Part shown: positions 2-54,676 of the stretch, in pieces | Layout: every line of letters begins with the position of its first letter | Position numbering within the stretch: the first letter of the stretch is position 1 | Source of the DNA: Muribaculaceae bacterium | GTDB lineage: Bacteria; Bacteroidota; Bacteroidia; Bacteroidales; Muribaculaceae | Assembly (NCBI GenBank): GCA_022509185.1 | Contig: JAFLTS010000003.1 | Span: 62,001-126,000, forward strand | Length of the DNA: 64,000 nucleotides | Direction of reading: 5' to 3' | Notes under the pieces: model-generated | The model's database searches: none | Seen by the model: the letters and a program-made list of their open reading frames with translations, nothing else | What the model was told of the DNA's origin: nothing | Position numbers and translations under genes: made by a program

Positions 2-3000
2 ACAAATCTATTGAACAAAGTTCCGACTATCAATGCTGTTTCTCCTTCAGCATTCAGAGTAAACGCCGAATTCGCAACACTTCTTCCTCAGAAACAGAAA
101 TCCGGCACAACTAAAGGCTCATCCTATATTGATGATTTCGAAGGTAGCCAGACAGGAGTAGACCTAAGGAATCCTTATTCATGGACTTTAGCCTCCACTC
201 CGTATGATCCGGGGCCTGATGCTCTGTTCCCGGAAGCGGGTCTTTCTAATAATGTGGATTATGGAAAAAATAGAGCACTGCTGGCCTGGAATTATATCGA
301 CAGATTCTGGACCCAGAAAAATTCCGACCTTATACCAGGTTATCTACGAAATGACTTGAAACAGCTTTCCAATCCTTATGTGAGGGAAGTAAGGGTAGAT
401 GAAATTTATCCGGGCCGTGACGTGCTTTACGGAGAATCCAATTATGTACAGACCTTGAACCTTTCCTTTTATCCAAAGGAGAGGGGTCCATATAACCTTG
501 ATGCCGAAAATATCGATGATCTGGGTAATCTTCTCAATCCACAGAAAAGATGGGGTGGCATCATGCGTAAAATGGATAATCCTAACTTTGAGCAGAATAA
601 TGTGGAATATCTTCAGTTCTGGCTCCTGGATCCTTTCCTTGATCCGGAGAATCCGAATGAAGAGGGGGGCGATCTGTATTTCAATTTCGGCGAGATCAGC
701 GAGGATATCCTGAAAGATGGAATGAAAAGTTATGAGAACGGTATTCCGGTAGACGGTAATTATAATTTCATCAAGGAGACTAATTGGGGGCGGGTATCAA
801 CGCAGACATCTCTTACCTATGCTTTCGAGAATTCCGAGAATGCCCGTGTGCTTCAGGATGTGGGACTCGACGGTCTTCCAAACGTAGATGAATATACATT
901 CAGCTCTTATGCGGAATATCTTGAAAAACTTAAAAACAAACTTCCGGCTACTACAATAGCGGACATGGAGGAGGATCCATTCTCACCAATGAATGACCCG
1001 GCAGGTGATAATTATCATTTCTATAGAAGTAATTACTATGATGATGTGAAAGCCGGCATTCTTGACCGTTATAAAAGATATAACGGAGTGGAAATGAACT
1101 CTCTTTCTCCGGATCAGAGTGATAATCCTTACTATCAGTCTTCAAGAAGTGTACCCGATGTGGAGGATATCAATCAGGATAATACCTTGAACGAATATGA
1201 GAGATATTTCGAATATAAGATATCTATCCGTCCGGAGGATCTTGTTGTAGGTCAAAATTATGTCACTGACAGAAGAGAGAAAGTGGTTACCACAAGAGAG
1301 GGCCCTGCTACCACCGTATGGTATCAATTTAAAATTCCTTTGAAGCAACCGGACAAAGTGGTGGGAGATATCAATGATTTCACTACAATAAGGTTTGCCA
1401 GAATTTTCATGACCGGATTTAAGGAAGTGACACATCTCAGGTTCGCCACTTTAGAACTTGTAAGGGGTGAATGGAGAAACTATGAATACAGCCTTACCAG
1501 CAGAAACGAAAGTCCGGCAGAGGGAGTTCTGGATATGTCGATAGTAAATATTGAGGAGAATGCAGGACGTGATCCCATAAACTATGTATTACCGCCGGAT
1601 GTGAGTCGCCAGCAGGATCCGGGTTCCACACAGGCCACACAACTTAACGAGCAATCCCTCCAGATGAAAGTTACGGGTCTTCAACCCGGAGATGCCCTGG
1701 GTGCTTATAAAAACACGCAGCTCGATCTACGTGTTTACAGGAGGATGCAAATGTGGGTACACGCGGAAGCATTAGTAAACGATGTAACAAATCTTCAGGA
1801 TAATGACCTTGCTATATTTATCCGGTTAGGTTCTGATATCAAAAACAACTATTATGAATATGAAGTGCCACTGGAGATAACTCCACCGGGATATTACAAC
1901 AATTATAATTATTCCGACAGGCAGAAGGTATGGCCGATCTCCAATTTCCTTGACTTTCCGTTTGAGGTCCTGACGAATATGAAGGTTGCTCGAAATCATG
2001 CTATGAGTTCTCACCAGGAAAATACAGGCTACGGTATTTTATATTCAGGCCCGGATCCCAATAATGAGAAGAATACAGTCAGTGTATTGGGAAACCCAAC
2101 TCTTAGCGATATCAGGACAATGGTTATCGGTATCAGAAACAAGAGTAACAGCGTGAAAGACGGGGTGATATGGGTTAATGAACTTAGAGTGACCGATTTC
2201 AATGAATACGGTGGCTGGGCAGCTAATGTGAATGCCAACCTCACTTTGAGTGATTTGGGTATGGTGAATTTCACAATGCATAAGGAAACTTCGGGTTTTG
2301 GAGGAGTTGACCAAGGGCTCACAAGCCGTAGACTTGATGATTATGACCAATATACTGTAGCAGTACAGGGAGACGTTGGAAAACTTTTGCCGGAAAAGGT
2401 GAAATTAAATGCGCCGGTGTATTATTCAAAGAGCAATGAAACCACTACACCACGATATAATCCCCTTGATCAGGATATACTCTTAAAAGATGCTCTCAAG
2501 GCAGCCACTACAAAACATGAAAAGGATTCAATCAAATCTTTTGCATTGACAAAATCTACTGTGGAAAGTTTCTCTGTGTCTAATTTCAGGTTTGATATCC
2601 AGAGTAAGAATCCGATGCCTTGGGATCCGGCCAATTTCCAATTATCTTTCTCATTTAATAAACAAAAAAACCTTGATCCTACAACGGAATATGAAAATAC
2701 CTTTGATTACCGTGGAAGTTTTCAATACAGTTACAGCCCTTATATAAAACCATGGAAACCCTTTGCTTTTGTATCCGGAAAGAGTAAATCTGCGAAGTTT
2801 ATCCGTGAATGGGGTATCAACTGGATGTTTAACAATCTGACTTTCTACACCAATATGACCCGTTATTATTACGAGGAACAGACGAGGAGTGAGGTTGACG
2901 TTAATTTCCAGTTACCCGTACAAGTGAGCAAGAATTTCTATTGGAACCGACAATTGAACCTTACCTGGAATCTCATTCCATCATTGAATTTTACCTTTGC

Positions 3001-44785: not shown

Positions 44786-45880
44786 TTATTTAAGTGGTTT
44801 GGATTCACAATACAGGCATCTCCATTCATCAGGCTTGTCGTGAGCCGGACGGAAAATACTTTCAACGCCTGTTTCCATATTTGAAATACAACGTTTGTTA
44901 CGGCAAATGAATTTACCCTTCACAGCATCTTTCGGAATTAAATCTGAATTCTTTTGAGGATCTTTAGCCCATTCCAGTAATTTAGAAATAAGAGCCATTC
45001 TTACGAATTTCCCATTTTCTACCTGACGGAAATAAGCGGCTCTTGGATCTGAATCTACGTCAGTGCTTATTTCATTAACTCTGGGAAGAGGATGGAGTAT
45101 ACACATATCAGGTTTTGCTTTCTTTAGCTTTTCTGCATCTAGTACAAAGAAATCTTTAACTCTATCATATTCATCTTCATCAAGAAATCTTTCTTTCTGT
45201 ACCCGAGTCATATACAAGACGTCGAGGTCTCCGATTACAGGATCTATAGAATCTACTTCCACATATGGCACACCATTCATGTCACACACTTCCTGTTTCA
45301 TATAATCGGGTAGACGCAATTGCTCCGGTGCAATCAAAACAACCTTGATACCTTCGTATCTTGATAAAGCTTTAATAAGGGAATGAACCGTTCTGCCAAA
45401 TTTCAGATCACCACAGAAACCAATTGTAATATTGTCGATTCTTCCAAGTTCACGTTTAATTGTGAGAAGGTCGGTGAGAGTTTGTGTAGGATGACTATGG
45501 CTTCCATCCCCTGCATTAATAACAGGTATTTTAGAATTTAAGGCTGCCACTGTAGCTGCTCCTTCTTCAAAATGCCTCATGGCTATAATATCGGCAAAAC
45601 AGTTTATAACCTTTGTGGTATCAGCACAAGTTTCTCCTTTACTGACTGAAGAACTTTTTGCATCGGCAAATCCCAGAACATTACCTCCAAGTTCCATCAT
45701 TGCCGCTGTAAAGCTTAACCGAGTACGAGTTGATGGTTCATAAAACAGAGTGGCAAGTTTTTTCCCTTTGCATACTTCACTATATTTCTCCCGGTTTTCT
45801 ATTATATCCTGGCCGAGAGCTAAAATATCTTCCAATTCTTCTTTAGAAAGATCAGTAGGGTCTATTAAATGTTTTGCCAT
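44786..45880 (-). CDS. pyrB: Aspartate carbamoyltransferase with fused PyrI-like zinc domain
   Basis: A 364-residue protein. Residues 1-303 are a full ATCase catalytic chain: Y-E-P-S-T-R-T-R carbamoyl-phosphate loop, H-P-T-Q-T-L motif and H-P-L-P-R-V-N. Residues about 304-364 add a segment with Cys326, Cys331, Cys355 and Cys358 spaced C-x4-C-x23-C-x2-C, which is the same spacing as the four zinc ligands of the E. coli PyrI regulatory chain, in a PyrI-like context ([13 protein letters not shown]). The nucleotide-binding allosteric domain (about 100 residues) of PyrI is absent, and no pyrI is in the window. This enzyme makes carbamoyl aspartate in UMP synthesis. The fused zinc domain may hold catalytic chains together; loss of CTP/ATP control is expected (inference). 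It overlaps pyrE by 16 nt. Confidence 0.93.
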
Positions 45881-46500
45881 GACGGATCTGAGGGATTAGA
45901 CATGAATTTTTTTAATTTATTTTCTTCTTCTGTGGAAATATACTTTTCAGCAACCGCTACATTACAAAGTGTATCAAAGTTTGTGAGCGAATAATTGGTA
46001 ACTTCAGCTTCTTTTAATCTTTGCAAACCTTTTTCCATTCCATAGGTGAAGATACTGACTACACCGAGAACAATAGCACCGGCCTCTCGAAGTGCCTCTA
46101 CAACTTCTATACAACTGCCTGCTGTAGAAATTAAATCTTCAATAACCACTACCTTCTGACCTTTTTCAAGTTTTCCCTCGATTCGGTTTCCTCTTCCATG
46201 ATCCTTATTTCCACCTCTGACATATCCCATAGGGAGATTTAATATCCAGGCTGCAATTGCAGCGTGTGCAATACCTGCTGTACTTGTACCCATCAGAACT
46301 TCTACCTCCGGAAATTTTTCTTTAACAGTAGAGGCAATGCTCTCTTCTACAATTTTTCGAGCCTCAGGATCAGAGAGGATCAAGCGATTGTCACAATATA
46401 TGGGGCTCTTGATTCCACTTGCCCAAGTGAAAGGATTTCCAGGACGAAGGAAAACAGCTTTTATTCTAAGCAGTTGTTTGGCAATTTCAGTATCATTCAT
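45865..46500 (-). CDS. pyrE: Orotate phosphoribosyltransferase
   Basis: A 211-residue type I phosphoribosyltransferase that joins orotate and PRPP into OMP. The PRPP-binding motif reads [13 protein letters not shown], with the flexible loop [14 protein letters not shown] upstream. The N-terminal [27 protein letters not shown] is typical of PyrE. Gap to pyrF is 21 nt, and its end overlaps pyrB by 16 nt. Length is normal. Confidence 0.95.
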
Positions 46501-46521
46501 ATTATTAGAAGAATCAAAATA

Positions 46522-47262
46522 TTAAATAAAATTTGAAGGATTGTAATTAAATTCCTCAGGAGCAAGGAAATCAGATACACATTTATTATATGCTTCCAGA
46601 GGATCACTGGCAGCAGTAATAGGACGTCCCACAACAATAAAATCAGAACCTAAAACTCTTGCCATTGCAGGATCCGTTATTCTTTTCTGATCATCCACAG
46701 CTGAGTCTTTGAATCTTATTCCGGGAGTCACTGTGAGAAATTGAGGTCCGCATGCCTGTTTAACTTTGGCTACTTCCAAAGGTGAGCATACTACTCCATC
46801 TAATCCTGCTTTCATTGCATTTGTTGCATAATGAGCGATCGTTTCATCTATAGGATTATCAATTAGAAGCTGAGATTTCATGGCCTCTTCAGATGTTGAG
46901 GTAAGTTGTGTTACAGCAATAAGCAATGGAGCAGATCCATCAGGTCGAGTAAGACCTTCTTTGGCTGCCATCATCATTTCTATAGTGCCGGCTGCATGTA
47001 CATTCACCATGTCTACATCAAGGTTAGAAAGTACTTTCATAGCTTTCTTAACTGTATTAGGAATGTCGTGTAATTTAAGATCCAGAAAAATTTTAAACCC
47101 TCTTTTTTTAAGTTCTCTTACAATTTCAGGTCCAGCAGCATAGAAAAGCTCCATTCCAATTTTCAAGAATGGCTTAGGCTCAACTTCTTTGAACTTGTCT
47201 AAAAATTTATAACATTCCTCAGCAGAAGAAAAATCACAAGCAATAATCACATCTTTTTTCAT
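46522..47262 (-). CDS. pyrF: Orotidine 5'-phosphate decarboxylase (short, type 1 form)
   Basis: A 246-residue OMP decarboxylase making UMP. The catalytic array is visible: D in [11 protein letters not shown], Lys in [11 protein letters not shown], and the D-L-K-L-H-D-I-P core; later GVVCSP and TPGIRF. This is the short type 1 PyrF found in Firmicutes and enterobacteria; many Bacteroides use a longer (about 270) form. Its ATG overlaps the pyrD stop by four bases. The arrangement after pyrK-pyrD is the same as in Bacillus pyr operons. Confidence 0.95.
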
Positions 47263-48179
47263 GGCTGTCTTAAAATTTTTAATGAAGAGATTCCAAGCCT
47301 TCGCATCAGGGAAGGTAGTTCATAAATAATTTCCATACATGCGTATGGGTTTATGAGGTTAGCTGTGCCTACTTCAACGACACTGGCACCAGCTATTATC
47401 ATTTCAACTACATCTTCTGCCGTAGAAACGCCTCCACATCCTATTATTGGAATATCCGGGAATGCCTGATGCACCTGATATATCATTCTTAGGGCTATCG
47501 GGAAAACTGCAGGTCCCGAAAAACCACCCATAAGATTGGCTATTATTGGTTTTCGAGTCTTTATATCAAATCTCATACCTAATAGAGTGTTTATCAGGCA
47601 TAACCCGTCAGCTCCGTTATGAACGGCAGCTTCAGCCATAGCCACAATATCGGTGACGTTAGGAGTAAGTTTTACAAACAGTGGAATTGTACAAACTTTT
47701 TTAACTTCTTTAACAAGTTCTCCAAGAATTCCCGGATCAGTTCCGAAAGATATTCCTCCGCCATGTACATTGGGGCAACTGACATTCAGTTCAATAAATC
47801 CAACTTGAGGTTCATTTGTGATTTTAGTACAACATTTAACGTATTCCTCCACTGAGAAACCGCTTATATTGGCAATAATGGGTTGGTGGAAAACTTCGCG
47901 AAGTTTAGGTAATTCACGTGCAATCACCGCATCCACTCCGGGGTTTTGAAGGCCTACGCAATTGATCATTCCGGAATAACATTCAGCTACCCGAGGTAAA
48001 GGATTCCCGAATCTTGCATTAAGAGTGGTGCCTTTAAAGGAAATTGAGCCTAAGATATCAATAGGATAGTATTGATTCATTTCATACCCATATCCAAAAC
48101 ATCCTGAAGCAGGAATTACGGGATTCTGGAGTGTAACCCCGCAAAGATCCATACTTAGATCCATTCTATTTATTTCCAT
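47259..48179 (-). CDS. pyrD: Dihydroorotate dehydrogenase, class 1B catalytic subunit
   Basis: A 306-residue class 1 dihydroorotate dehydrogenase (PyrDB) with FMN. Signatures are the [12 protein letters not shown] start region, [14 protein letters not shown] (catalytic Cys), and [10 protein letters not shown], then [13 protein letters not shown]. With the PyrK subunit next to it this forms the NAD-dependent 1B enzyme, suited to an anaerobe. The ATG overlaps the pyrK stop by 10 nt. Length normal. Confidence 0.95.
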
Positions 48180-48922
48180 ATAAGCTCACTTTTTTTGAAT
48201 ACAGGTCCTTCTTTACATATTCTTTTCGATCCCTTAATGGTTTCCAAAGAGCAACACATACAAGCCCCGAAACCGCAGCCCATTCTACACTCGAGACTCA
48301 TTTGTCCTTCAGTAGGTAGCATGGAAAGACTTTTTAACATGGGTAGGGGACCACAGGCATAAAAATAATCATATTTAAGTTCTTTCTCCTTAATTACATC
48401 TGTAACGAAACCTTTTGTGCCGGTAGTACCATCCAACGTGGCTATATAAGTGACAAGTCCCATGTCTCTCATATCTTTTTCCATTCCCCATGAATCTTTA
48501 GCTGTATTATACCCTAAAACTACCTGGGGTCTGAGTCCGTTCTCAATGAGGTCGTAAGCCAGTTGCAAAAGAGGAGCCGCACCTATTCCTCCACCAAGGA
48601 GAATGGGTTTTTTAATATCCGAAGGAATGGAGAATCCATTCCCTAGGCCTACCAGAATATTAAGTTCCTCTCCCGGTTTCATTTTAGATAAGATAAATGT
48701 ACCTTCTCCCACTACATTGTATAATAGATGTAACCCTTTTTCTCTTGTGAAATATCGGGAAACGGAAATAGGCCTTCTTAGAAATTTGCCTGGAATAGAT
48801 ATATTTACAAACTGTCCGGGAGCCGTGATTAAAGCTACTTCCCCTTTGAGTCGAAGAAACCATGTTCTTGGTCCAACCTGACGGTTTTCTTCAATAAGAA
48901 AAATTTTATTTATATCCTTCAT
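48170..48922 (-). CDS. pyrK: Dihydroorotate dehydrogenase electron-transfer subunit
   Basis: A 250-residue ferredoxin-reductase type protein with FAD (FLRRPISVSRYF), NAD-binding (LGGGIGAAPLLQLAYDL), and a C-terminal [2Fe-2S] cluster: C-R-M-G-C-G-F-G-A-C-M-C-C and a later Cys in RICKEGPVF. It passes electrons from PyrD flavin to NAD. It begins 1 nt after the carB stop. In class 1B enzymes this subunit is required. Confidence 0.95.
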   Translation of the reverse strand: MKDINKIFLIEENRQVGPRTWFLRLKGEVALITAPGQFVNISIPGKFLRRPISVSRYFTREKGLHLLYNVVGEGTFILSKMKPGEELNILVGLGNGFSIPSDIKKPILLGGGIGAAPLLQLAYDLIENGLRPQVVLGYNTAKDSWGMEKDMRDMGLVTYIATLDGTTGTKGFVTDVIKEKELKYDYFYACGPLPMLKSLSMLPTEGQMSLECRMGCGFGACMCCSLETIKGSKRICKEGPVFKKSELIWK

Positions 48923-48923
48923 A

Positions 48924-51900
48924 TTAATCTTCGTCGATGGTGGATACTTTCATTGTGATATCTTCAAGAACATCCAACAATACTTCCACGGTTTCCAGAG
49001 AAGTAAATACTGTTATATTATTATCCACGGCAGCCCGACGAATATGATAACCATCCTTATGAGAATGGTCAGCCCCCAGTTCCATAGTGTTAATAACGTA
49101 ACTTACATGGCCTTGTCGCAGAGATTTCATAATATCATCAGAGCCTTCACTGAGTTTTTTCATCAGTCGGGTTCTGACACCGTTTTTACGTAAAAATTCA
49201 GCGGTACCTCTTGTAGCTTCAATATTAAAGCCAAGACCATAAAAACGTTTAATGAGTGGAAGAGCTCTTTGTTTATCATTATCGCCTATGGTTACAAAGA
49301 CTGTGCCGTAATTAGATACTGTCATTCCGGAGGCTTGCAATGATTTATAAAGAGCACGTTTTAGAGATCGGTCATAACCAATTGCTTCTCCTGTTGATTT
49401 CATTTCCGGAGAAAGATAAGAATCCATTCCTCTCAATTTTGAAAAAGAAAAAGCCGGAGTCTTAACAAACCAACGTTTCTTCTCTTCGGGATAGAGTTGT
49501 GTTATACCTTGTTGTTTAAGGCTTTCTCCCAACATTACCCGGGTAGCAATAGGAGCAAGTGGTTTCCCTGTAGCTTTAGAAATAAATGGCACGGTGCGGG
49601 AAGATCTTGGATTCACTTCAATCACGAATACTTCATCATTGGGATCCACAATAAACTGAATATTGTAAAGACCTTTTATTCCTATTTCCTTTCCGAGTTT
49701 CACCGTATAATCCAAGATGGTATCTTTTACTTTTTGAGAGACACTGAAAGTAGGATATACACTCATGGAATCCCCGGAATGCACTCCGGTGTGTTCCACA
49801 TGTTCCATAATCCCGGGAACAAAAACATCTTCACCATCACAGACTGCATCTACCTCGAGTTCTTTACCCATAATATACCTGTCAACTAAGACAGGGTGTT
49901 CATCGTTGATTTCCACAGCTTCCTGGAGATACTTTCTGAGTTGATCTTCATGACTCACTATTTGCATAGCTCTTCCTCCAAGAACAAAACTGGGACGCAC
50001 TAATACAGGGTAACCTATTTTATTAGCTGCTTCTACCCCTTGTTCTATTGTTGTTACGGCCATACCCTTAGGTCGGGGTATACCAAGCTTTTCCATTATA
50101 GCTTCAAAACAACCTCTATCTTCAGCATTACGTATTGCATCGATATCAGTTCCAATAATTGGTGCCCCGAGTTCCGCGAGCCTTTCAGCGAGATTTATTG
50201 CCGTCTGGCCTCCTAAAGTTACAATGACTCCATCCGGTTTCTCATGATCAAGCACGTTCATAACGTCTTCCACCGTCAAAGGTTCAAAATACAACTTATC
50301 GCTGGTGGTATGGTCTGTTGAAACAGTTTCAGGATTATTATTTATTACAATAGCTTCGTATCCGGCATTTCTAATAGACCATATGGCGTGAACAGTAGAA
50401 TAATCAAATTCTACTCCCTGACCTATACGTATAGGTCCCGAACCCAATACCACGATTTTTTTCTTTTTGGAGGGTATAGATTCGTTTTCAGAATCGTAGG
50501 TGGAATAGAAATAATCTGTGGTGGAATGGAATTCCGCACCACAAGAGTCAATCATTTTATAAACAGGCTTGATATTATTTTTAATTCTGATTTTTCTTAC
50601 CTCATCTTCAGATATTTTCCAACATTGTGAGATAAACTTATCGGAAAAACCATAAGACTTAGCTGTTTTTAGTATATCAATATCATTAGGGTTAGCCTTT
50701 ACTTTCTTTTCTATATCCAGAATGTTCTTTATTTTATCGAGGAAGAACATGTCAATTTTGGTACGATTATAAATATGCCCGGCATCTACATCTCTCCAAA
50801 GTAGTTCAGCCAATGCATATAGACGGTCGTCTGTCGGAGTCTTTATATAATCAAGCAATTCTTCTGTTGAAAAAGAATCGAATTTAGGCAAATATAAATG
50901 GCAAACTCCGGTTTCGAGAGATCTTACTGCTTTCAGCAAGGATTCTTCGAAGTTTCTTCCAATACTCATAACTTCACCGGTAGCCTTCATTTGAGTTCCG
51001 AGTTGATTGGAAGCATCAGCAAATTTATCGAATGGGAATCTTGCAATTTTAGTGACGACATAATCCAAAGTTGGTTCAAAACTTGCCGGAATGTGTCCAA
51101 GATTAATTTCATCCAGATGTAGTCCAACAGCAATTTTTGCACTTACTCTTGCAATTGGGTAACCGGATGCTTTCGATGCCAAAGCCGAAGATCTGGATAC
51201 TCTCGGATTCACCTCAATAAGATAATAATCAAAAGAAAGAGGATCCAATGCAAACTGCACATTGCATCCACCTTCAATCTTTAAGGCCCTGATCAGCTTT
51301 AAAGCGCTGTCTCTCAATAACTGGTATTCCTTATTAGAAAGGGTTTGAGAGGGAGCTACCACAATAGAGTCGCCGGTATGGACACCAACGGGATCAAAAT
51401 TTTCCATTGAACAGATGGCGATTACAGTATCATTTGCATCCCTCATCACTTCAAATTCAATTTCCTTAAACCCTTTGATACTTTTCTCTACGAGCACCTG
51501 GTTCACCGGAGACAGATCGAGAGCAGTCCTCATTAAATCTCTTAATTCCTCTTCATTATCGGCGAATCCTCCTCCCGTTCCTCCGAGTGTGAATGCAGGA
51601 CGTAAAATAACAGGGTAGCCGATCTTTGATGCAATTTCCACTCCTTTTTCTATCGAGTCTGCCACATCGCTGGGTAAAACCGGTTCATTTATAGATTCAC
51701 ATAACTCTTTAAATTTTTCCCGGTCTTCAGCCATTTCAATAGAATCGAAAGAAGTACCTAAAATTTCTACCCCACATTCTTCAAGTATGCCTTTTTTTGC
51801 TAATTGTACTGCGAGGTTAAGACCGGTTTGGCCACCAAGACCGGGAACAATAGCATCGGGCCGTTCATATCTTACGATTTTTGCCACATATTCCAGAGTA

Positions 51901-52106
51901 AGGGGCTCCATATATACCTTGTGAGCAATTTCAGGATCTGTCATTATGGTAGCTGGATTAGAATTAACCAGCACCACTTCATAACCTTCCTCTTTAAGAG
52001 CTGCACAAGCCTGTGTTCCGGCGTAATCAAATTCAGCTGCTTGTCCCACAACGATAGGACCGGAACCGATCACCATTATCTTTTTTATATCTTTTCTTTT
52101 TGGCAT
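48924..52106 (-). CDS. carB: Carbamoyl-phosphate synthase large subunit
   Basis: A 1,060-residue CarB with two homologous ATP-grasp halves (about 1-400 and 550-935), each with an IMVIGSGPIVVGQ-type start, plus an MGS-like regulatory domain at the C-terminus (about 940-1060; VFVTIGDNDKQRALPL and a RGTAEFLRKNGV). In well-studied enzymes this C-terminal domain binds UMP, ornithine or IMP. It uses ammonia from CarA to make carbamoyl phosphate. It is 3 nt from carA; no internal break is seen. Only one carAB pair is in the window, so arginine and pyrimidine synthesis may share it. Confidence 0.97.
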   Translation of the reverse strand: MPKRKDIKKIMVIGSGPIVVGQAAEFDYAGTQACAALKEEGYEVVLVNSNPATIMTDPEIAHKVYMEPLTLEYVAKIVRYERPDAIVPGLGGQTGLNLAVQLAKKGILEECGVEILGTSFDSIEMAEDREKFKELCESINEPVLPSDVADSIEKGVEIASKIGYPVILRPAFTLGGTGGGFADNEEELRDLMRTALDLSPVNQVLVEKSIKGFKEIEFEVMRDANDTVIAICSMENFDPVGVHTGDSIVVAPSQTLSNKEYQLLRDSALKLIRALKIEGGCNVQFALDPLSFDYYLIEVNPRVSRSSALASKASGYPIARVSAKIAVGLHLDEINLGHIPASFEPTLDYVVTKIARFPFDKFADASNQLGTQMKATGEVMSIGRNFEESLLKAVRSLETGVCHLYLPKFDSFSTEELLDYIKTPTDDRLYALAELLWRDVDAGHIYNRTKIDMFFLDKIKNILDIEKKVKANPNDIDILKTAKSYGFSDKFISQCWKISEDEVRKIRIKNNIKPVYKMIDSCGAEFHSTTDYFYSTYDSENESIPSKKKKIVVLGSGPIRIGQGVEFDYSTVHAIWSIRNAGYEAIVINNNPETVSTDHTTSDKLYFEPLTVEDVMNVLDHEKPDGVIVTLGGQTAINLAERLAELGAPIIGTDIDAIRNAEDRGCFEAIMEKLGIPRPKGMAVTTIEQGVEAANKIGYPVLVRPSFVLGGRAMQIVSHEDQLRKYLQEAVEINDEHPVLVDRYIMGKELEVDAVCDGEDVFVPGIMEHVEHTGVHSGDSMSVYPTFSVSQKVKDTILDYTVKLGKEIGIKGLYNIQFIVDPNDEVFVIEVNPRSSRTVPFISKATGKPLAPIATRVMLGESLKQQGITQLYPEEKKRWFVKTPAFSFSKLRGMDSYLSPEMKSTGEAIGYDRSLKRALYKSLQASGMTVSNYGTVFVTIGDNDKQRALPLIKRFYGLGFNIEATRGTAEFLRKNGVRTRLMKKLSEGSDDIMKSLRQGHVSYVINTMELGADHSHKDGYHIRRAAVDNNITVFTSLETVEVLLDVLEDITMKVSTIDED

Positions 52107-52109
52107 ATC

Positions 52110-53204
52110 TCAGATTTGTTTCTCAGTATTAGGAATCATGTTAATAAAACGGTCGAAGAGATAAATGGTGTCTTGAGGTCCTGGAGCACTTTCAGGATGG
52201 AATTGGACTGAAATAACCTTTTCTTTTTCACATTCCAGACCTTCCACGGTGCCATCAAGAAGATTTATATGAGTAACTGATAAAGGTGTCTGATCTACAG
52301 ATTCTTTATCAACAGCATAACCATGGTTTTGAGCTGTAATTAATACTTTCCCTGTTTTCAGTTCTTTAACCGGATGGTTTCCACCTCTATGTCCGGGATT
52401 AATCTCACATATCTTGGCTCCATAAGCAAGGGCAAGCAGTTGATGACCAAGACAAATACCAAACATTGGCACTTTCCCACGAAGTTTTTTTAGAGTTTCA
52501 ATCACCTCTGGCACATCTTCCGGAGACCCGGGACCATTTGAAATGAGAACTCCGTCAGGCTTAAAATCAAGAATCTGTTCTGCTGTAGTGTTCCAGGGCA
52601 CCACCGTGACATTACAACCATGATGATTTAAGTTTCTGACCATATTCAGCTTCATGCCACAATCAATTGCAACTATATCGTATTTGCAATTGGTGGTTCT
52701 GGCGAACCATCTTTTTCTACAACTAACTTTACTTACGAGATCTTTAGGTCTTGGCTGAGCTTTAATTTTAGCAACAGCTTCTTCAACAGGTGTATCTTCG
52801 TTTGTGATAATTGCTCTCATGCCGTTTGCATCACGAAGAATTCGAGTTAACATGCGAGTATCGATACCGCTGATACCCGGAATCTCATTTTCTTCCAATA
52901 CTTCTGCCAAGGTTTTAGTGTATCTGAAGTTTGAGGGTGAATCGTTGTTTTCTTTAACAATCATACCACCTATAGAAGGAAACTTTGTTTCATAATCCTC
53001 GTCGGTAATTCCGTAATTACCTATCAAAGGATATGTCATTACAATAATCTGATCGGCATAAGACGGATCAGATAATATCTCCTGATAACCTACCATCGAA
53101 GTATTAAACACGAGTTCTCCAACTCTTTCTTCGTTAGAAGCGAAACCGATACCACGGAATTCGCGTCCATCTTCAAGCACAAGTTTTTTAGGGACGTTAT
53201 TCAT
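52110..53204 (-). CDS. carA: Carbamoyl-phosphate synthase small subunit
   Basis: A 364-residue glutamine amidotransferase subunit. The N-terminal domain (LVLEDGREFRGIGF; NTSMVGYQEILSDPSY) and the class I GATase domain with the catalytic Cys in F-G-I-C-L-G-H-Q and the His/Glu pair in VQFHPESAPG are all intact. It frees ammonia from glutamine and channels it to CarB. Its ATG overlaps the pyrC stop (ATGA-type, 4 nt). Confidence 0.97.
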   Translation of the reverse strand: MNNVPKKLVLEDGREFRGIGFASNEERVGELVFNTSMVGYQEILSDPSYADQIIVMTYPLIGNYGITDEDYETKFPSIGGMIVKENNDSPSNFRYTKTLAEVLEENEIPGISGIDTRMLTRILRDANGMRAIITNEDTPVEEAVAKIKAQPRPKDLVSKVSCRKRWFARTTNCKYDIVAIDCGMKLNMVRNLNHHGCNVTVVPWNTTAEQILDFKPDGVLISNGPGSPEDVPEVIETLKKLRGKVPMFGICLGHQLLALAYGAKICEINPGHRGGNHPVKELKTGKVLITAQNHGYAVDKESVDQTPLSVTHINLLDGTVEGLECEKEKVISVQFHPESAPGPQDTIYLFDRFINMIPNTEKQI

Positions 53205-54484
53205 AGTAGTGCGTTAAAAACGGGTTTGCCGTTATATATCGTCATTAGAATCTTACTTTTCAATTCGAGACCCTCATAGGGAGTGGCTTTACCTAAAGAT
53301 TTGAAATTCTCAGGATCTACAATGAAAGAATCATTGATATCTATCACGGTAATATTGGCCTCATTACCAGTCTCAATAGTATCTTGAGGAAGATGCAGAA
53401 TTTTTCTCGGATTCAAAGCCATAACTTTGATTAAATGTTGCAAAGACATTAATCCTGAAGACACCATGGTAGTGTAAACAGCCGGGAAAGCTGTTTCAAG
53501 TCCTACTACACCCATAGCGCTTTTTTGTAGTCCACGGCTCTTTTCTTTCATTGAATGGGGTGCATGATCAGTTGCAATTACATCAATTGTTCCGTCAATC
53601 AATCCCTCACGTAAAGCCTCACGGTCTTCAATACCGCGGATAGGTGGGTTCATTTTAAATCTGCCTTCATCTTTAAGGTCCTGATCGCTGAAGGTGAGAT
53701 AGTGAGGCCCGGTTTCACAAGTCACGTCAATACCATTCTTTTTTGCTTGTCTTACCAATTCTACACTTTCTTTGGTTGAGATATGACAAATATGCAGACG
53801 GCATCCGGTTTCTTCCGCGAGAATAATATCTCTTTCAACTTCTTTCCATTCTGATTCCGATGAAATGCCGGGGTGACCATATTTTTTTGCGTAAGTGCCT
53901 TTATGGATATAACCTCCTTCCAGTAAAGATTCTACTTCACAATGTGCAGCCAGGATTTTTCCTGTTTTAGAAATTCTTTCCATGGCTTTCTTCATTATAT
54001 CCAGGTTCTGCACGCCCGAACCATCATCAGAAAAGCCTGCAACAAAAGGAGCCAGAGCCTCGTAATCCACTAATTCTTTTCCCATACGTCCTTTAGTAAT
54101 AGCGGCGAAGGGAATTACTTGAACATGAGCATCCCGCCTGATTATATCCAACTGAATTTTTAGATTTTCAATTGAATCCGGAGTGGGATTTAGATTTGGC
54201 ATAGTACAAACAGTGGAAAAACCGCCGGCAGCCGCAGCTAAAGAACCTGCATTAATGGTTTCTTTATATGAGAAACCTGGTTCCCTGAGATGCACATGCA
54301 TATCCACCAAAGAGGGGATTACAATTTTCCCTGTTAAATCATAAGATGGATAAGAATCAGCTTTAGGCTTTGAATCTGAAAGGATTTTAATTATTCCTTC
54401 GGATATAAAAATATTTTTCTCAACAAAATCATTGTTGCAAAATATTTTTGCATTCAAGAGCCAGAAAGATTTCAAATCAGTCAT
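53201..54484 (-). CDS. pyrC: Dihydroorotase
   Basis: A 427-residue type I dihydroorotase. The metal site begins with D-M-H-V-H-L-R-E-P-G (His-x-His), with HCEVESLLEGG and ATDHAPHSMKE later. It closes carbamoyl aspartate into dihydroorotate. It is the first gene of the UMP operon; the ATG at 54484 comes 5 nt after the U-run of an intrinsic terminator (54489-54526), so nearly all its mRNA must come from reading through that terminator. There is no room for another promoter between terminator and gene. Confidence 0.95.
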   Translation of the reverse strand: MTDLKSFWLLNAKIFCNNDFVEKNIFISEGIIKILSDSKPKADSYPSYDLTGKIVIPSLVDMHVHLREPGFSYKETINAGSLAAAAGGFSTVCTMPNLNPTPDSIENLKIQLDIIRRDAHVQVIPFAAITKGRMGKELVDYEALAPFVAGFSDDGSGVQNLDIMKKAMERISKTGKILAAHCEVESLLEGGYIHKGTYAKKYGHPGISSESEWKEVERDIILAEETGCRLHICHISTKESVELVRQAKKNGIDVTCETGPHYLTFSDQDLKDEGRFKMNPPIRGIEDREALREGLIDGTIDVIATDHAPHSMKEKSRGLQKSAMGVVGLETAFPAVYTTMVSSGLMSLQHLIKVMALNPRKILHLPQDTIETGNEANITVIDINDSFIVDPENFKSLGKATPYEGLELKSKILMTIYNGKPVFNALL

Positions 54485-54488
54485 AATT

Positions 54489-54526
54489 CAAAAAACAAAA
54501 AAGCAACTCTAAAAATGAGTTGCCTT
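54489..54526 (-). terminator. Attenuator terminator immediately before pyrC
   Basis: On the minus strand GCAACTC and GAGTTGC pair (54517-54523 with 54503-54509; extended by G-U and A-U pairs to about 10 bp), followed by a T-rich run (TTTTGTTTTTTG, 54500-54489). It ends 4 nt before the pyrC ATG, so it must be passed for the operon to be expressed. Confidence 0.82.
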
Positions 54527-54629
54527 AAAAAATTGAAAAAATTGTAACGTCACGGAATGAAATTCCGTTTTCGGCTGCCTGTAAGCAAGATCCTTGCAGG
54601 AAATGGTGACGTTGACAATTTGTTGTCAT
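54525..54629 (-). CDS. Possible leader peptide of the pyr operon (34 codons)
   Basis: An ATG at 54627-54629, about 11 nt after the predicted transcription start, opens a 34-codon frame that runs through the whole folded leader and stops (TAA, 54525-54527) right at the foot of the terminator stem. Its last codons come from two U-runs (ACA-AUU-UUU-UCA-AUU-UUU). In E. coli pyrBI a leader peptide ending in U-rich sequence lets a trailing ribosome block the terminator when UTP is low. A 34-codon frame can occur by chance, so coding is unproven; it is too short for ordinary gene finding. Confidence 0.35.
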   Translation of the reverse strand: MTTNCQRHHFLQGSCLQAAENGISFRDVTIFSIF

Positions 54630-54644
54630 CCCTCTAATTTTATG

Positions 54645-54676
54645 CAAAGATAACAAAAAATCATTATTACCACAAA
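54645..54676 (-). promoter_or_regulatory. Consensus Bacteroidetes promoter of the pyr operon
   Basis: On the minus strand TTTG (54676-54673), a 20-nt spacer and TATCTTTG (54652-54645) match the full consensus. Transcription would start near 54640, 11 nt before the possible leader ATG. Confidence 0.78.

What the first reader, a model, noticed from the sequence alone, without database searches (positions are those of the whole stretch)
54489..54676. Candidate UTP-sensing attenuator in front of an entire UMP operon
Seen directly: a consensus promoter, about 11 nt later an ATG frame of 34 codons that ends in two U-runs, its stop codon abutting an intrinsic terminator, and pyrC 4 nt beyond the U-run. 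No other promoter fits between. This is the arrangement used by E. coli pyrBI (leader translation and U-tract pausing decide whether a terminator forms). It is not something I know to be described in Bacteroidetes, which generally lack PyrR-type control. Low UTP would let the ribosome catch up and block the terminator. The alternative is a riboswitch or a stand-alone small RNA.
Basis: partly seen in the sequence, partly recalled or inferred. Interest (0 to 1): 0.78.

Follow-up and report, generated by a model that had tools for sequence, protein, structure and literature searches.

The report
Pyrimidine operon attenuator, pyrBI-like, in Muribaculaceae
In front of a complete pyrimidine-making operon of a gut bacterium sits a short translated leader with a built-in stop signal whose layout, kept in relatives although the sequence changes, resembles the UTP-sensing switch known from E. 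coli, so the cell probably makes pyrimidines mainly when UTP runs low.

Summary
On the minus strand lie a Bacteroidetes-type promoter, a 34-codon ORF (54629-54525), a hairpin, a U6 run and an intrinsic terminator that starts at the stop codon; pyrC follows 5 nt beyond the U tail. The operon covers all UMP steps: pyrC-carA-carB-pyrK-pyrD-pyrF-pyrE-pyrB. Comparison supports a translated attenuator. 22 window-type operons occur in 21 of 111 same-genus genomes; all 22 have a leader ORF reaching a terminator, and 21 also have a hairpin and a U-rich tract. Leader letters drift (16 comparable leaders: mean 44% nt identity, minimum 20%), yet ATG-to-U-run stays 82-90 nt, and frame 0 has no stop in 21 of 21 leaders (38 and 26 stops in the other frames). 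Amino acids are not detectably conserved beyond their nucleotides, no antiterminator is shared by the set, no Rfam family matches, and PyrR is absent (0 of 111). E. coli pyrL has the same order of parts without sequence similarity. Best reading: pyrBI-like, UTP-sensitive, translation-coupled attenuation of the whole pathway. UTP dependence is inferred; against it, one window-type operon and a sister leader type lack the U-run.

The parts
54645..54676 (-). Promoter: TTTG, 20 nt, TATCTTTG (Bacteroidetes-type -33/-7)
   Evidence: Read from sequence. TAnnTTTG within 40 nt upstream of the ATG in 18 of 21 leaders, and with one mismatch in a nineteenth. The other two follow a tRNA-Cys gene. The start site is not mapped.
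54525..54629 (-). Leader ORF, 34 codons plus TAA: MTTNCQRHHFLQGSCLQAAENGISFRDVTIFSIF
   Evidence: Frame open to the U-run in 21 of 21 related leaders; stop-free column shuffles only 97 of 20000 (7 type A leaders) and 235 of 20000 (7 type B leaders).
54552..54568 (-). Hairpin ACGGAAU-UUC-AUUCCGU ahead of the U-run (proposed pause hairpin)
   Evidence: Fold; a hairpin is predicted at this place in 21 of 21 leaders, 12 of 21 at p<=0.05 against shuffles, mean z -2.11. Covariation within alignments is slight, but the second G228 copy keeps the hairpin with different letters.
54536..54541 (-). U6 run, proposed UTP-sensitive pause site, 88 nt after the ATG
   Evidence: Run of 5 or more at ATG+80..98 in 19 of 21 leaders, 1.67 expected from shuffles.
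54500..54526 (-). Intrinsic terminator stem-loop; U-rich tail runs to about 54490
   Evidence: stem present in the consensus folds of 8 type A and 10 type B leaders; ATG-to-terminator 100-114 nt in 21 leaders.
53201..54484 (-). pyrC, dihydroorotase, first gene of the UMP operon
   Evidence: TIGR00857 396 bits, above cut-off.
44786..53204 (-). carA, carB, pyrK, pyrD, pyrF, pyrE, pyrB: rest of the UMP operon
   Evidence: pyrK below curated cut-offs, the other five scanned above one. pyrB is the only aspartate carbamoyltransferase over cut-off in the genome.

Best explanation
A pyrBI-like, UTP-sensitive, translation-coupled transcription attenuator that sets expression of the whole UMP pathway. 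Proposed steps: (1) RNA polymerase starts about 10 nt before the ATG and a ribosome loads at once on the leader ORF (inferred). (2) About 88 nt past the ATG the polymerase meets a hairpin followed by U5-7. At low UTP it pauses there, perhaps helped by the hairpin at its RNA exit (anatomy shown; pausing inferred). (3) During the pause the ribosome closes up behind it. When the polymerase moves on, the ribosome translates to the end of the ORF, at or inside the terminator, and its footprint blocks the 5' arm, so transcription runs into pyrC and the operon (geometry shown; event inferred). (4) At high UTP the polymerase does not wait, the terminator forms and transcription stops. Spacing, open frame, hairpin and U-run matter; the peptide probably does not.
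For: A profile of 11 leader peptides searched in six frames over 111 genomes gave 18 clear leaders (E<=2.8e-5): 14 directly upstream of pyrC, 3 upstream of carA, 1 cut by a contig end. 11 of the 18 were in the profile; all 7 new ones lie upstream of pyrC (5) or carA (2). By operon place alone, 3 more that the profile had missed fit the plan, two of them at the extremes of the spacing. Near-fixed distances with mean 44% nt identity. No frame-0 stop in 21 leaders against 38 and 26 in the other frames. Peptide not conserved beyond its nucleotides (z 1.2 and 0.8). U-run kept although its codon phase differs between subtypes, so nucleotides rather than Phe codons seem selected. No PyrR and no Rfam element at gathering score. 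E. coli pyrL has the same order: hairpin, short gap, U5, terminator inside the ORF, gene.
Against: No measurement of UTP, pausing or translation. One of 22 window-type operons (G370) has a 24-codon ORF abutting a terminator but no T run longer than 3 in it; one leader has UUAUUU and one only U4. A sister operon type (17 genomes; 14 leaders examined) has the ORF-at-terminator layout without any U-run, so the layout does not require UTP sensing. Five type A leaders share AATTG(TC) or GATTG near the start that could pair with the terminator 5' arm (5-7 pairs; shuffles reach this in 6-66% of cases), so an antiterminator in that subgroup is not excluded. Hairpin covariation in the alignments is slight, and 9 of 21 hairpins are not significant alone. 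A paper found that the E. coli pyrL pause it studied is not hairpin-stabilised (PMC9291695, passages). Shared ancestry makes counts non-independent, and the amino-acid test has low power.
Confidence: 0.7

Rival explanations
1. Translation-coupled attenuator that answers to something other than UTP: overall translation capacity, another nucleotide, or a nascent-peptide signal. The ribosome still decides the terminator, but the U-run is only a pause that times it.
For: The sister type D leaders (17-codon ORF with its stop 6 nt before the terminator in 12 of 14 leaders examined) and G370 have no U-run.
Against: The U-run is kept near a fixed distance in 19 of 21 leaders, on pyrimidine genes wherever the next gene is on the contig. 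The peptide is not detectably conserved and the NG motif is lost in the second G228 leader, which speaks against a nascent-peptide sensor.
Confidence: 0.17
2. A ligand- or protein-binding structured leader (riboswitch-like). In type A a long-range helix (AAATTGTCAACG with CGTTACAATTT) could close a three-way junction ahead of the terminator; the ORF would be incidental.
For: Window fold z -3.84; 7 of 9 type A leaders tested keep at least 6 of 7 pairs of the long-range helix, and its second block shows some covariation (permutation p 0.017).
Against: The helix is absent from G025 and weak in G367. RNAalifold on 8 type A and 10 type B leaders gives no shared structure beyond hairpin and terminator. 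No Rfam family at gathering score (only sub-gathering matches). The open frame, with 38 and 26 stops in the other frames, would be unexplained.
Confidence: 0.08
3. No regulation by the leader: a constitutive terminator that makes a small RNA or lowers expression, with a chance ORF.
For: The single-sequence terminator scan is at chance level; no expression data.
Against: Near-fixed geometry and open frame in 21 leaders, with down to 20% nt identity among 16 of them; upstream of the same operon in 17 of 18 profile hits, the other being cut by a contig end.
Confidence: 0.05

Closest known systems
E. coli pyrBI (pyrL) UTP-sensitive attenuator
   Same: Order of parts measured side by side: early ATG, hairpin, short gap (10 nt from the 6-bp stem, 7 nt if two outer pairs are counted; 10-11 nt in the window), U-run of 5 or more inside the ORF, intrinsic terminator inside or at the end of the ORF, then a pyrimidine gene.
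   Different: No sequence similarity (no alignment at E<=100). E. coli ATG-to-U-run 60 nt and U-run-to-terminator 28 nt, here 82-90 and 15-24. First gene pyrC or carA, and the whole UMP pathway follows. The stop codon begins 2-11 nt before the terminator arm in 9 of 21 leaders, whereas pyrL reads through. In type B the predicted hairpin touches the U-run.
PyrR-dependent attenuation (Bacillus and relatives)
   Same: Terminator ahead of pyr genes (recalled).
   Different: PyrR in 0 of 111 genus genomes at E<=1e-10, with 6 of 14 control genomes positive; no PyrR RNA element in the window at Rfam gathering score.
Amino-acid leader-peptide attenuators (trp, his, leu)
   Same: Translated leader ORF and terminator.
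   Different: No run of regulatory codons seen by eye, and no antiterminator shared by the set (a candidate in five type A leaders); target is a nucleotide pathway.
Leader-peptide attenuation reported or suggested in Bacteroidota
   Same: Short ORFs in 5' UTRs suggested as attenuators in B. thetaiotaomicron (PMC7366714, passages) and, for amino-acid operons, in Flavobacterium (PMC9723704, passages).
   Different: The passages I saw do not link attenuation to pyrimidine genes; the Flavobacterium paper names PyrE only in a promoter table.

Membership tests
pyrBI-type UTP-sensitive attenuator | Short leader ORF kept open up to or into the terminator | tested here: met
   21 of 21 leaders without frame-0 stop up to the U-run; the stop begins 2-11 nt before the terminator arm in 9 and inside or after it in 12. 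A 22nd leader (G370) also abuts its terminator.
pyrBI-type UTP-sensitive attenuator | U-rich tract in the ORF upstream of the terminator | tested here: met
   U of 5 or more in 19 of 21 leaders; one UUAUUU, one U4. Absent in the 22nd (G370).
pyrBI-type UTP-sensitive attenuator | Pyrimidine biosynthetic gene directly downstream | tested here: met
   17 of 18 profile hits upstream of pyrC or carA; the other is cut by a contig end.
pyrBI-type UTP-sensitive attenuator | No alternative antiterminator needed (recalled feature) | tested here: inconclusive
   No single leader beats shuffles at 5% (fractions 0.06-1.00, 21 leaders), but five type A leaders have their best complement at the same place, AATTG(TC) or GATTG.
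pyrBI-type UTP-sensitive attenuator | UTP-dependent RNA polymerase pausing and readthrough that depends on leader translation | not testable with these tools
   Needs in vitro transcription and reporter work.
pyrBI-type UTP-sensitive attenuator | Sequence homology to pyrL (not strictly defining) | tested here: not met
   No local alignment at E<=100; the likeness is of design only.
PyrR-dependent attenuator | PyrR protein encoded | tested here: not met
   0 of 111 genus genomes; own genome best 23.7 bits against a cut-off of 138. Own genome is 88% complete.
PyrR-dependent attenuator | PyrR-binding RNA element | tested here: not met
   The only Rfam match at gathering score in the window is a tRNA elsewhere.
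Amino-acid leader-peptide attenuator | Mutually exclusive antiterminator hairpin | tested here: inconclusive
   None shared by the 21 leaders; a weak candidate in five type A leaders.
Nascent-peptide arrest leader | Peptide sequence under selection | tested here: not met
   Amino-acid similarity z 1.2 (7 of 8 profile-found type A leaders) and 0.8 (7 of 10 type B leaders) against 97 and 235 stop-free column shuffles, so low power; NG motif lost in the second G228 leader.

The most novel reading that the evidence does not exclude
The leader is a kinetic ruler: selection keeps only the distances (ATG to U-run about 88 nt, U-run to terminator about 17 nt), an open frame, a hairpin and a U-run, while letters and peptide drift freely. 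It arose independently of the E. coli system on a UMP operon that this one Muribaculaceae genus may have acquired laterally, with no PyrR, and it controls the complete pathway from one site. Its working would show tight transcription-translation coupling in Bacteroidota.
Probability: 0.4. Interest if true: 0.72.

Novelty: new member of a known kind. Interest (0 to 1): 0.6.

Why it matters
UTP-sensing attenuation is known to me chiefly from enterobacteria (recalled). A second, non-homologous case in another phylum would be convergent evolution of a regulator-free switch, and would place control of the entire UMP pathway at one leader. It also offers a direct test of whether ribosomes trail RNA polymerase closely in Bacteroidota, because the proposed switch cannot work otherwise. 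The set of 21 diverged leaders with near-fixed spacing is ready-made material for such tests.

Tried and rejected
Rfam at permissive threshold gave only sub-gathering matches: GcvB 25.7 bits against 42, Bp1_738 24.3 against 45 and weaker ones, rejected as chance. DNA search of 61 relatives found a full-length match only in G008 and a partial one in G016; the rest looked like AT-rich noise. Family-wide peptide search: the real leaders went down to E 2.5e-4 (G265); four weaker hits that I viewed (G079, G166, G192, G216) did not look like leaders, and the others were not viewed. Weak genus hits L176-L182 (7 of 25 matches) were dropped before counting; five of the seven were viewed, L179 and L182 were not. 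A BLOSUM test with a stop penalty favours frame 0 in type A and in the 60-nt type B leaders, but not in the 3 leaders before carA; one search shows that this comes from absent stops, and the synonymous fraction is not significantly raised. An antiterminator shared by all leaders was not found. The long-range helix in type A is kept only as a minor possibility. Rfam on 20 of the 80 loci (19 with Firmicutes-type titles, 1 Tidjanibacter) found one tRNA and no PyrR element, so what a presumed donor used is unknown. No tree was built for the lateral-transfer idea. Literature: 9 searches of the held PMC library; none of the listings showed a pyrimidine attenuator in Bacteroidota, but most subscription papers are not held, and the review I looked for was not held. 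Passages, not whole texts, were read in 6 papers.

Full report
WHAT IS THERE. The feature is on the minus strand. Promoter TTTG-N20-TATCTTTG (54676-54645), ATG at 54629, 34 codons, TAA at 54527-54525, a terminator stem at 54526-54500 with a U-rich tail, and pyrC from 54484. The ORF holds a hairpin (54568-54552), then U6 (54541-54536), then a second U6 beside the stop. The operon is pyrC, carA, carB, pyrK, pyrD, pyrF, pyrE, pyrB, so every UMP step is covered (pyrK scores below the curated cut-offs); the only aspartate carbamoyltransferase over cut-off in the genome is this pyrB. No Rfam family reaches its gathering score here.

RELATED LEADERS. The window probably lies in a Muribaculaceae genome, as judged from relatives whose contig lengths equal those of titled records. 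Reading upstream of pyrC in relatives showed similar leaders, and a family-wide profile search added five more. A profile of 11 leader peptides, searched in six frames over 111 same-genus genomes, gave 18 clear leaders at E 2.8e-5 or better: 14 directly upstream of pyrC, 3 between pyrC and carA, 1 cut off by a contig end. Eleven of the 18 were in the profile; the 7 new ones lie upstream of pyrC (5) or carA (2). To lessen choice by peptide, I searched carA in the same 111 genomes. 21 genomes have a window-type carA (75-100% identical), with 22 operons because G228 has two; 17 more have a 59-64% type. In G025 and G279 the leader and carA lie on different contigs, so that link is inferred. Three further leaders of the window kind were found by place (G367, G274, second copy of G228). 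The 22nd operon (G370) has a 24-codon ORF that abuts a terminator but no T run longer than 3. In a family-wide sample of 397 genomes the carA match (E<=1e-145, both types together) occurs in 28, all in 1 of 30 genera.

GEOMETRY KEPT, SEQUENCE LOST. In the 21 leaders ATG to U-run is 82-90 nt (mean 88.2, sd 1.8), U-run to terminator 15-24 nt, ATG to terminator 100-114 nt. Sixteen of the 21, those with equal length up to the hairpin, share 44% of bases on average, minimum 20%, maximum 82%. Frame 0 has no stop before the U-run in any of the 21; the +1 frame has 38 stops (20 leaders) and the +2 frame 26 (17 leaders). Shuffling alignment columns of codons 2-20 gave stop-free sets in 97 of 20000 trials (7 of 8 type A leaders) and 235 of 20000 (7 of 10 type B leaders). 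Against such stop-free shuffles the amino acids are not better conserved (z 1.2 and 0.8), though power is low. So the open frame is kept and the peptide apparently is not. In 9 of 21 the stop codon begins 2-11 nt before the terminator arm; in 12 of 21 the ORF runs into or through the terminator.

HAIRPIN AND U-RUN. U-runs of 5 or more occur at ATG+80..98 in 19 of 21 leaders, 1.67 expected from dinucleotide shuffles; the other two have UUAUUU and U4. The run sits in a different codon phase in type A and in most of type B, so it is not kept for Phe codons. A hairpin is predicted before it in 21 of 21; 12 of 21 are better than shuffles at p<=0.05, mean z -2.11, while a control stretch (from codon 2) has z between -0.74 and 1.17. 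Type A hairpins (CGGAA/UUCCG) end 10-11 nt before the U-run. In type B the fold favours a longer hairpin (GGAAG/CUUCC) that touches it. Covariation within the alignments is slight, but in the second G228 copy the hairpin persists with other letters, CGAGG/CCUCG.

COMPARISON WITH E. COLI pyrL. The K-12 leader was fetched and measured in the same way: ATG, a 6-bp stem ending at +50 (+53 with two outer pairs), U5 at +60, terminator arm at +88 inside a 44-codon ORF, then pyrB. The order matches and the hairpin-to-U gap is similar. The absolute distances differ and there is no sequence similarity. In pyrBI, tight coupling across the leader prevents the terminator (PMC5021804, passages); low UTP as the cause of pausing is recalled. 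One study did not find hairpin stabilisation of the pyrL pause it observed (PMC9291695, passages), so I do not treat the hairpin as a defining part.

ALTERNATIVES. PyrR: 0 of 111 genomes, 6 of 14 controls positive. Antiterminator: none shared by the set, but five type A leaders carry AATTG(TC) or GATTG at one place that could pair with the terminator arm; single-leader shuffle fractions there are 0.06-0.66. Riboswitch: no fold shared by A and B beyond hairpin and terminator. A type A long-range helix between the start region and the U tract is kept in 7 of 9 leaders tested, with mild covariation (p 0.017); it could close the start site once the polymerase has passed, sharpening the decision, but this is speculation. 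The strongest caution is the sister operons: of 14 type D leaders examined (of 17 operons; the other three are cut by contig ends), 12 have a 17-codon ORF whose stop lies 6 nt before the terminator, a thirteenth (15 codons) stops 12 nt before, and in the fourteenth (L214) the script picked a wrong ATG, the 17-codon ORF being confirmed; outside that misread stretch the longest T run between ATG and terminator is 2. The layout therefore exists without a U-run, and what type D senses is open.

VERDICT. A translated, terminator-controlling leader ahead of the whole UMP operon: very likely. UTP sensing by U-run pausing: probable (0.7), untested. It works like pyrBI attenuation in design and shows no homology to it.

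Noticed in passing
L202, L203, L205-L210, L213-L215, L042, L043, L047 (14 of 17 same-genus operons with 59-64% carA): A second leader family (type D): ATG soon after the -7 box, 17-codon ORF with its stop 6 nt before a strong terminator in 12 of 14, ATG-to-terminator 57 nt in 13 of 14, a hairpin with compensatory changes at the stop codon, and no U-run. What it senses is unknown.
   Followed up: partly
L041, L044, L045: A third leader type before pyrC in other relatives, read by eye: short ORF, AGTCT/AGACT hairpin, a GATTTTA-like stretch, then a GAGGC terminator.
   Followed up: no
G367 (L197) shows the same tRNA 3' part by eye, cut by the contig end and not found by ARAGORN.
   Followed up: partly
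L201 (G228): Two divergent copies of the UMP operon start (pyrC and carA) lie back to back around a tRNA-Cys gene, each with its own diverged leader.
   Followed up: partly
window 44786-54484: The UMP operon may have been acquired laterally: titled PyrC relatives are mostly Firmicutes MAGs besides Muribaculaceae and other Bacteroidota (80 loci), no pyrC match at 1e-60 in 24 genomes of other families of the order, and carA matches at 1e-145 in only 1 of 30 genera of the family. No tree was made.
   Followed up: partly
window 54629-54525, type A leaders: Possible long-range helix between codons 3-7 and the U tract (AAATTGTCAACG with CGTTACAATTT) with mild covariation; the same AATTG stretch could also pair with the terminator arm.
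   Followed up: partly
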